Origin: SAR202 cluster bacterium bin127
GTDB lineage: Bacteria; Chloroflexota; Dehalococcoidia; Lucifugimonadales; Lucifugimonadaceae
Direction: 5' to 3'
Assembly (NCBI GenBank): GCA_002239045.1
Contig: MPNN01000004.1
Coordinates: 186,001-250,000, forward strand
Length of the DNA: 64,000 bases
This document shows positions 41,001-41,983 of this stretch, piece by piece; the stretch's first letter is position 1; each line of letters opens with the position of its first letter. The notes below the pieces were generated by a model. It did not search any database, was not told where the DNA came from, and saw nothing but the letters and a program-made list of their open reading frames with translations. Both the position numbers and the translations under genes were made by a program.

Positions 41001-41827
41001 GAGTTGTTGTGCAGTCGCACTTGCTGCAAACCTGCCAGATTGCTAAAGATGCCGGAGGGTAGAGAGCGCAGATTATTGTCGTTGACGTTTAAGCGTTGCA
41101 ACGATGAGTTGCTTCCTACCGTGACGTCCGCGGTCAAACGATCGAATAGCCCTGCAGGTAATGTCGGTAGTTCGTTGAAATGCAGAGAGACGCGCTGCAA
41201 ACTAGACAGCCCATCGAACAACCCCGCTGGCAACGATCGGATTTTGTTGTAGCTGAAATAGAACCTCTTCAGCCCGGCCATTTCGTCGAGGGCATCGGAA
41301 TCAATAGTAGTAATCTGGTTACCGACGAACTCTAGACGGATATCAGCACTGGTGGCTGTAGACGGGAACCCTTGGAAACCGTCGAACCAATCGGCTTTGA
41401 AGTGGGTCAGTCGGTTGCCACTCCCGACCAATATCTCTAAAGCGGGCAGACCGCTGAAAACGCCGGCCGGCAAGTCTTCGATGTCGTTGTTGGAAAACCT
41501 CAGATCCGTCACCGCGTCAAGACCGTCAAAGATGTCGGCCGGCAATTCGCTGATCTCGTTGTTCTGAATATCGAGCGTCGTCAACCCCGTCATCCCGGCG
41601 AAATCACCAGACTTCAGAGACGTGAAGCCAGGTTTTTCGACGCGGCGGAAAGTTGTCAAGCTAGCCAGATCGTCAGATGTAATGTCTGCGCAAGCCGCAA
41701 TCCTCGCATCAACGTTCTTACCATCACGATCCAACTCCGTTGCCCGAGCATCAGGCAACCGGTCCCAAATGCCCAGCTGAACTTCCTCCGTGCGATCGCA
41801 GATCACAGTTGAAGCTTGAGCGGACAC
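38054..41827 (-). CDS. Giant leucine-rich-repeat surface protein with sortase-like C-terminal signal; N-terminus frame-shifted by a G9 tract
   Basis: Two LRR arrays (LPAGLFDGLSSLQRVSLHFNELPTLPAGLFD etc.), C-terminus VAPDTGGTAPASSMALWSLLFGIAAVVIGTFIAIGLRRRWAVPSP. The same frame upstream of 41827 encodes a signal peptide but is cut off from an ATG by one extra G (see findings). Confidence 0.9.
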   Translation of the reverse strand: MSAQASTVICDRTEEVQLGIWDRLPDARATELDRDGKNVDARIAACADITSDDLASLTTFRRVEKPGFTSLKSGDFAGMTGLTTLDIQNNEISELPADIFDGLDAVTDLRFSNNDIEDLPAGVFSGLPALEILVGSGNRLTHFKADWFDGFQGFPSTATSADIRLEFVGNQITTIDSDALDEMAGLKRFYFSYNKIRSLPAGLFDGLSSLQRVSLHFNELPTLPAGLFDRLTADVTVGSNSSLQRLNVNDNNLRSLPSGIFSNLAGLQQVRLHNNSLQSLPSGLFDNNPGLYEVRLSNNQITSLPSGLFSNNAGMQILHLDNNRIRSLDGLELEKLTWLFDFALHNNQLSQLPDVYVTSFVEDSEKTSGVLTYCLRNLTLDNNPFADSWIAGGSFNDYLTAFGSRFNRTCSITAAAATFRTFALVLGLGGIDLSVEVIDESKTAWQLLAENFADANRYRFIYYLSFGWDGLEVDADVVDALPTTLEELKIQDTSFASSVTGASFARFTKTSALVRQYFFRRTGDPILAIDHVENAGLGGLQILRLDNVGLSGDGSRIVDGLPVSTMRLLEITNNPGFNQIPASARSLTNLVGLDLKSNGITSLDANALQGLSNLIFLSVEDNEVDTVHEDALNGLSALRTLLMDDNEIATLPGDLFSGSSALRDVHLTNNELLGLPSGLFDGVSALKTIQLQSNPGAPFQIGVSVVDDTTDATMKQLHIREGAPYDFVPKVVKDGAIESVVPVTGGTTMTTNAFSIPEGASVVLPAFHPDRPSSTYEFCLGVSDCYAGFEFVLDPKPSIVSMSFDNPSQLFTAGDKLRFKALFDRDVVVDGKPQLSFMLGDDTRHAVYVETTPNGELCFEYTLQETDRSPDRVSLSASMLRYPSKSAIKDSVTDELAATMPRRTDATVYALTTSTSLTFDTGRALISKIEPTIRSVTVSSGDLIRIGVDVYGAQDIKDNDLADGIRFLWSDDGGGGNFEGNGREVTYTAPAQSGTYTISVSTPFSACRAPATDEVRCETTFEVRVRRPSVAQPEVEAPVNPPGAIPELLADSDGNQYEVFTPVEGGTFSGEGYSIVAPSGAVPNGEFIGVRMSDEGAVSNVGMTHQRYTLGGNMYGVYAVDGSGAAVSSYALDDPATVCLPLPDALRSNISDLAVVAINGDGSLTILSAQVRLNNTAGTMVCGGLSNLPASVAVGSSGAPAAIPTAMPEPTPVAPDTGGTAPASSMALWSLLFGIAAVVIGTFIAIGLRRRWAVPSP

Positions 41828-41939
41828 GACGCCAACGCGTGGATCCCTCGGATCAAACTCAATAATCGCTATTGATGCAATTAGAAATAGAAGGCTTAGA
41901 TAAAGAGTTGGGTGCGCCCAAAAGGGCGCAATACGTCTA

Positions 41940-41948
41940 CCCCCCCCC
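41940..41948 (-). repeat. Poly-G9 homopolymer (C9 on + strand)
   Basis: atgtataaaataGGGGGGGGGtag on the minus strand. Confidence 0.95.
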
Positions 41949-41983
41949 TATTTTATACATATGTCTCAACATTGTGTCGGGCC

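What the first reader, a model, noticed from the sequence alone, without database searches (positions are those of the whole stretch)
41820..41975. G9 homopolymer after the start codon puts a giant LRR surface protein out of frame: candidate phase-variable contingency locus, OFF in this assembly
Seen directly: on the minus strand, ATG (41972) TTG AGA CAT ATG TAT AAA ATA GGG GGG GGG TAG stops after 11 codons (MLRHMYKIGGG*). Deleting one G from the G9 run (41940-41948) gives ATG...ATA GGG GGG GGT AGA CGT ATT GCG..., i.e. MLRHMYKIGGGRRIAPFWAHPTLYLSLLFLIASIAIIEFDPRDPRVGVVSAQA-STVICDRTEE, which runs straight into the 1257-aa LRR protein. The sequence between the tract and the called GTG start (41827) therefore encodes a convincing signal peptide in the LRR frame, but has no usable start except across the G tract. 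Established: poly-G tracts in the first codons of surface protein genes drive slipped-strand phase variation in many bacteria. Inference: ON/OFF switching here, in a lineage where I do not know of it being described. The main alternative is a one-base homopolymer sequencing error.
Basis: partly seen in the sequence, partly recalled or inferred. Interest (0 to 1): 0.87.

Follow-up and report, generated by a model that had tools for sequence, protein, structure and literature searches.

The report
Poly-G on/off switch, surface LRR protein
A run of nine Gs just after the start codon puts a large surface protein of an uncultured marine Chloroflexota bacterium out of frame, and the same arrangement at the starts of surface-protein, sugar-transferase and DNA-methylase genes in related genomes suggests that this order of bacteria uses runs of G as genetic on/off switches, which I found described nowhere for this phylum.

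Summary
In detail: minus strand, ATG(41972), G9 (41940-41948), immediate TAG. A different tract phase joins the start to a signal peptide and a 1,257-aa LRR protein with an LPxTG-like tail. It is not a one-off. In this genome (Chloroflexota, Dehalococcoidia) about ten other secreted-protein genes carry G9-G15 or C10-C12 just after a start codon, some in frame and some out. LRR orthologues are either truncated at the same point (93%, 77%, 66% identical) or run in frame through Gly-Gly-Gly (64%). In seven genomes from other families of the order, poly-G sits directly after a motif, GAACATNNGTAC, at the starts of membrane glycosyltransferases, lipoproteins and Type III Mod methyltransferases next to Res. 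In 24 such genes with a recognisable leader the leader is always open and the junction is in frame in 9, as random phase predicts; paralogues with interrupted tracts are mostly in frame. So the locus is very probably a phase-variable contingency locus, part of an order-wide system. Slippage itself is not shown, because no reads were available. The motif resembles the LexA box (GAAC-N4-GTTC), which also occurs upstream of lexA and recA in some of these genomes; a link to SOS is speculative.

The parts
41982..41986 (-). Shine-Dalgarno-like AAAGG, 9 nt before the first ATG
   Evidence: sequence
41970..41972 (-). ATG start codon; second in-frame ATG at 41958-41960
41955..41966 (-). AGACATATGTAT, degenerate copy (7 of 10 fixed positions) of the tract-associated motif GAACATNNGTAC, 6 nt before the tract
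   Evidence: on its own P about 0.13 by shuffling; same place as in L034, L051 and L055
41940..41948 (-). G9 homopolymer; proposed slipped-strand switch
41937..41939 (-). TAG that ends the 11-codon peptide in the assembled (OFF) phase
41813..41938 (-). signal-peptide coding stretch in the LRR frame, no start codon of its own before GTG 41827
38054..41938 (-). body of the LRR surface protein (LRR_8, LRR_4, LRR_5), open to the stop
38075..39103 (-). C-terminal domain shared by a paralogous family with differing N-terminal repeats (residues about 909-1251 of the called ORF)
38054..38188 (-). APDTGG, hydrophobic stretch, RRR: LPxTG-like sorting signal (LPDTGG in homologues P0005 and P0008)

Best explanation
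The G9 is a simple-sequence contingency tract. Translation starts at ATG 41972 (or 41960), reads a short leader, crosses the poly-G and, when the tract length is in the right phase, continues into a signal peptide and a 1.25-kaa LRR protein probably anchored at the surface. Slipped-strand mispairing changes the length, so the protein is produced in some cells and not in others; the assembly shows an OFF state. The locus belongs to a larger set: this genome and genomes of other families in the same order carry poly-G (or poly-C on the coding strand) at the starts of surface proteins, glycosyltransferases, lipoproteins and Type III Mod genes, typically next to a conserved short DNA motif. Shown: the anatomy, the recurrence, the mixed phases, the conserved open leader. 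Inferred: slippage, reversible switching, surface role.
For: Same genome: tracts at starts of other secreted-protein genes, G15 LRR out of frame, G14 LRR in frame from TTG/GTG, G13 RCC1-repeat in frame, G9 316-aa protein out of frame, C10 DUF5122 protein in frame, C10-C11 signal-peptide genes mostly out of frame. Orthologues: P0001-P0003 start just after the signal peptide; P0004 (64%) reads MLMYLFNIEGGGRRS plus signal peptide; P0005, P0008 and P0011 have ordinary signal peptides without a tract. Order: GAACATNNGTACGGGGGG at 24 sites in 7 of 250 genomes, reversed-pattern control 0; most precede ORFs starting with a membrane segment or lipobox. In 24 genes with a recognisable leader all leaders are open and 9 junctions are in frame (8 expected at one third). 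Paralogues with short or interrupted tracts are in frame in most cases. Deposited homologues show leader plus Gly run, leader with interrupted tract, or truncation inside the membrane segment. Type III Mod next to Res in two genomes.
Against: No reads, so no length variation at one locus is shown. Homopolymer miscalls could by themselves give random phase in long-read assemblies. The copies of this family fetched from six genus mates lack a tract at the start, and their G>=9 tracts are not at surface-gene starts. In the LRR paralogues L034/L035, the RCC1 gene L031 and several poly-C genes an in-frame ATG follows the tract and could serve as start, so for those genes the tract need not be decisive. 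The motif match at the window itself is weak on its own.
Confidence: 0.85

Rival explanations
1. Sequencing or assembly slip: the real tract is fixed in the in-frame length and the gene is constitutively ON; the homopolymer is incidental.
For: One-base homopolymer errors are common; no reads available; the phase cannot be trusted in any single assembly.
Against: Orthologues from independent assemblies are truncated at the same point; tracts of G9-G15 and C10-C12 recur at the starts of unrelated genes in the genome and of many genes across the order. Even if the length is miscalled here, the tract itself remains.
Confidence: 0.07
2. Decaying pseudogene with a frameshift at its start.
For: Out of frame in this assembly.
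Against: The 1,294-codon frame is otherwise intact, as are homologues at 54-93% identity; the break lies exactly at a tract that recurs in other genes.
Confidence: 0.03
3. Programmed or stochastic transcriptional or ribosomal slippage on the G run supplies a constant fraction of in-frame protein, without DNA switching.
For: Would explain why out-of-frame genes stay intact; slippage on homopolymers yields in-frame mRNA in Buchnera (PMC2831843).
Against: Tract lengths differ between near-identical paralogues (Mod genes G11 and G12; glycosyltransferases G9 and G11), as expected for DNA-level instability; the length is not held at one phase.
Confidence: 0.04
4. The tract is a promoter spacer (GAAC as -35, TA after the tract as -10) and its length tunes transcription, as in Neisseria.
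For: GAAC and a following TA flank many tracts.
Against: In the window, in L055 and in L051 no start codon lies between the tract and the signal peptide; the leader upstream of the tract is open in 24 of 24 genes and is fused in frame in proteins with interrupted tracts.
Confidence: 0.02

Closest known systems
Poly-G/poly-C contingency genes of Neisseria, Campylobacter, Helicobacter (slipped-strand phase variation)
   Same: Homopolymer of 8 or more G/C near the start of the coding sequence; surface proteins, glycosyltransferases and Mod genes; mixed ON/OFF phases in one genome.
   Different: Another phylum, uncultured; a conserved 12-base motif stands next to the tracts, in either orientation relative to the gene; switching not measured.
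Phasevarions (phase-variable Type III Mod genes)
   Same: In relatives G046 and G050 Type III Mod genes next to Res carry G11/G12 or C13 tracts at their start.
   Different: No Mod gene with such a tract was found near the window locus; regulons untested.
BspA-like or internalin-like LRR surface proteins with LPxTG tails
   Same: LRR repeats (Pfam LRR_8, LRR_5), C-terminal PDTGG, hydrophobic stretch, RRR.
   Different: The C-terminal domain is shared with non-LRR paralogues (for example RCC1-repeat) in this lineage; the NCBIfam internalin models are hit far below cut-off.
Gram-positive LexA operator (SOS box), GAAC-N4-GTTC in Bacillus subtilis (PMC4234289)
   Same: The tract-adjacent motif GAAC-AT-N2-GTAC shares GAAC-N4-GT-N-C; matching sites lie upstream of lexA and recA in some of these genomes.
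   Different: Position 11 is A at most tract sites rather than T or C; it lies inside the coding sequence, directly beside the tract; binding untested.

Membership tests
Simple-sequence contingency locus (phase-variable gene) | long homopolymer where a one-base change removes the product | tested here: met
Simple-sequence contingency locus (phase-variable gene) | both ON and OFF phases occur among related loci | tested here: met
   orthologue P0004 against P0001-P0003
Simple-sequence contingency locus (phase-variable gene) | tract length varies at one locus within a population | not testable with these tools
   no reads; only paralogues with different lengths
Simple-sequence contingency locus (phase-variable gene) | body of the gene intact when out of frame | tested here: met
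   1,294 codons open
Phasevarion (relatives, not the window) | Type III Mod next to Res with a repeat tract in mod | tested here: met
LexA operator (SOS box) | GAAC-N4-GTTC consensus | tested here: inconclusive
   most tract sites read GAACATNNGTAC, one position off; a few read GTTC (L045, L194, L195)
LexA operator (SOS box) | same site upstream of lexA and recA in the same genomes | tested here: inconclusive
   GAAC-N4-GT[ACT]C: 5 sites in 16 upstream stretches of 150 bp against 0.14 expected, 0 of 300 simulations, so enriched; but present in only 4 of the 16 stretches and in none from the window's genome
LexA operator (SOS box) | LexA binding and SOS induction | not testable with these tools
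   needs experiment
Sortase-anchored LRR surface protein | signal peptide at the N-terminus | tested here: met
   only in the frame reached through the tract; hydropathy, SignalP not run
Sortase-anchored LRR surface protein | LPxTG-like sorting signal | tested here: met
   APDTGG, LPDTGG in homologues
Sortase-anchored LRR surface protein | sortase gene in the genome | not tested
   no search left

The most novel reading that the evidence does not exclude
The tracts are linked to the SOS response: a LexA-operator-like site (GAAC-N4-GTNC) beside the G run, kept at the DNA level across different reading frames and both gene orientations, couples expression or tract mutability of surface, glycosylation and Mod genes to DNA damage throughout an order of uncultured Chloroflexota.
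Probability: 0.2. Interest if true: 0.9.

Novelty: new variant of a known kind. Interest (0 to 1): 0.72.

Why it matters
Phase variation by homopolymers is known mainly from host-associated pathogens. Finding it at the starts of surface, glycosyltransferase and Type III Mod genes across an order of uncultured marine, in part sponge-associated, Chloroflexota would mean that these bacteria generate surface and epigenetic heterogeneity in the same way, probably in answer to phages or hosts. The conserved motif beside the tracts gives a handle for finding such loci and raises a testable question: is there a dedicated, perhaps damage-linked, element that marks or maintains contingency tracts? It also warns that gene callers truncate these proteins, and that short-read assemblies may break at them.

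Tried and rejected
DNA of the LRR orthologues P0001-P0004: not found in genome contigs, viral contigs or the family's genomes, so their tract bases are unread. Assuming that every G>=9 is a switch: rejected, because about half of those in G000 lie in the intergenic repeat GGATTCCGGCTTTCGCCGGAATGAC-Gn or elsewhere. Genus mates as positive cases: rejected; their tracts are not at surface-gene starts and several lie at contig ends or beside runs of N. First ON/OFF count used a faulty leader anchor and gave 6 of 25; replaced. Motif as a purely protein-level signature: rejected, because it is read in different frames (QNIST, RTSVR, EHMY) and stands on the opposite strand to the gene in the poly-C genes, L190, L194 and L195. 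Promoter-spacer model: rejected for the window, since no start codon follows the tract before the signal peptide. Literature: no paper found joining phase variation with SAR202, Dehalococcoidia or sponge symbionts; only open-licence PMC papers were searched.

Full report
Observation. On the minus strand ATG 41972 opens a frame that crosses G9 (41948-41940) and stops at once at TAG. The only long frame after the tract has 1,294 open codons. It starts with a positively charged stretch and a strong hydrophobic core, ends its signal region at VSAQA and continues into LRR repeats, a C-terminal domain and PDTGG-hydrophobic-RRR. It contains no ATG, GTG or TTG before the called GTG 41827, whose product would lack a signal peptide.

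Where it is. The window lies in a 3.0-Mb, 21-contig genome. Named relatives in the public genomes are Chloroflexi and Dehalococcoidia MAGs; several of the isolate names look like sponge metagenome bins, but that is from memory. The C-terminal domain is shared by a family of about ten or more proteins in this genome and in six genus mates.

Same arrangement elsewhere in the genome. Of the G>=9 runs in the genome, several stand at gene starts: G15 and G14 before two LRR proteins, G13 before an RCC1-repeat protein, G9 before a 316-aa secreted protein, and C10-C12 (coding strand) before several signal-peptide proteins, many at contig ends. A start codon lies 9-18 nt before nearly all of these. Some are in frame and some are not. 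Three genes (window, L055, L051) have no start codon between the tract and the signal peptide, so translation must cross the tract. In L034, L035, L031 and several poly-C genes an ATG follows the tract, so there the tract may be in a leader only. The other G>=9 runs mostly belong to an intergenic repeat.

Orthologues. In the large protein collection the three nearest relatives, 93, 77 and 66% identical, start just after the signal peptide, as a gene caller does when the frame is broken upstream. The fourth, 64% identical and on a 2.84-Mb contig, begins MLMYLFNIEGGGRRS and runs through a signal peptide, matching MLRHMYKIGGGRR of the window read in the other phase. More distant ones have plain signal peptides. 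The DNA of these orthologues could not be fetched.

An order-wide pattern. On the G strand most gene-start tracts of G000 are preceded by GAACAT-like sequence (12 tracts with 7 or more of 10 positions; intergenic-repeat tracts 6 or fewer; the window scores 7, which alone is not significant). Searching GAACAT followed by G8 in 40 relatives gave hits only in G000 and in three other families, with 0-1 in the reversed control. The stricter GAACATNNGTACGGGGGG gave 24 sites in 7 of 250 genomes of the order, none in the reversed control, and no genome outside the order in a sample of 396 genomes of the class. These searches were seeded by the motif. An unbiased list of G>=9 runs in the seven genomes shows the motif or a close form before roughly one in five.

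What the genes are. The tracts precede membrane glycosyltransferases (PMT-like), other membrane proteins, lipoproteins with a GSDH domain, and in G046 and G050 Type III Mod methyltransferases followed by Res. In G050 the Mod tract is poly-C on the coding strand, with the motif on the other strand.

Coding through the tract. Anchoring on the conserved leader (RAL...), all 24 leaders are open and 9 of 24 junctions are in frame, as expected if phase is random (one third). Caution: miscalled homopolymers would also randomise phase. Paralogues with short or interrupted tracts are in frame in most cases. Deposited homologues show the leader fused through Gly runs, the leader with an interrupted tract, or truncation within the first membrane segment. 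Near-identical paralogues differ in tract length: Mod G11/G12, glycosyltransferases G9/G11.

The motif. It is read in different frames in different genes (QNIST, RTSVR, EHMY) and lies on either strand relative to the gene, so it is kept as nucleic acid, not as peptide. It resembles the B. subtilis SOS box GAAC-N4-GTTC (PMC4234289). GAAC-N4-GT[ACT]C occurs 5 times in 16 upstream stretches (150 bp) of lexA and recA, against 0.14 expected, but in only 4 of those stretches and not in the window's genome. Most tract sites differ from the box by an A. A LexA link is a hypothesis.

Judgement. I hold it very likely that 41940-41948 is a contingency tract, OFF as assembled. What is shown is recurrence, position, mixed phase and intact downstream genes. 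What is not shown is length variation at any one locus. Known kind: slipped-strand phase variation. New: the phylum, the order-wide spread, and the motif beside the tract. A survey of 99 genomes found poly-G and poly-C generally under-represented and not biased to the 5' end (PMC2831843). I found no report for this phylum.

Noticed in passing
G000 contigs C2, C4 (both ends), C5, C9, C11, C12 (L040, L041, L044, L045, L048, L051, L052): Many contigs end within about 3 kb of a poly-G/C run, several of them inside large repetitive secreted-protein genes with poly-C starts, so the assembly seems to break at this gene class.
   Followed up: partly
L043, L046, L047, L049, L053 and L055:2436-2448: Dispersed intergenic repeat GGATTCCGGCTTTCGCCGGAATGAC followed by G9-G13; similar GCGGGAATGACGG-Gn in G050.
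   Followed up: no
L196, L198, L200, L201 (G041, G145, G197): A second context, Gn followed by TAGAA or CAGAA, at the starts (on the C strand) of membrane proteins and an RCC1-repeat protein; perhaps another switch family.
   Followed up: partly
L186:7254-10630: Two tandem Type III Mod genes with the same leader, G12 and G11, upstream of one Res gene: candidate phasevarion with two specificities.
   Followed up: partly
L057 (G004:C1:2085001-2105000): Tandem array of at least five related surface-protein genes with the shared C-terminal domain and near-identical leaders, without poly-G.
   Followed up: no
L166 (G145:C1:162225): Motif plus G9 with no long reading frame behind it: an orphan tract.
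   Followed up: no
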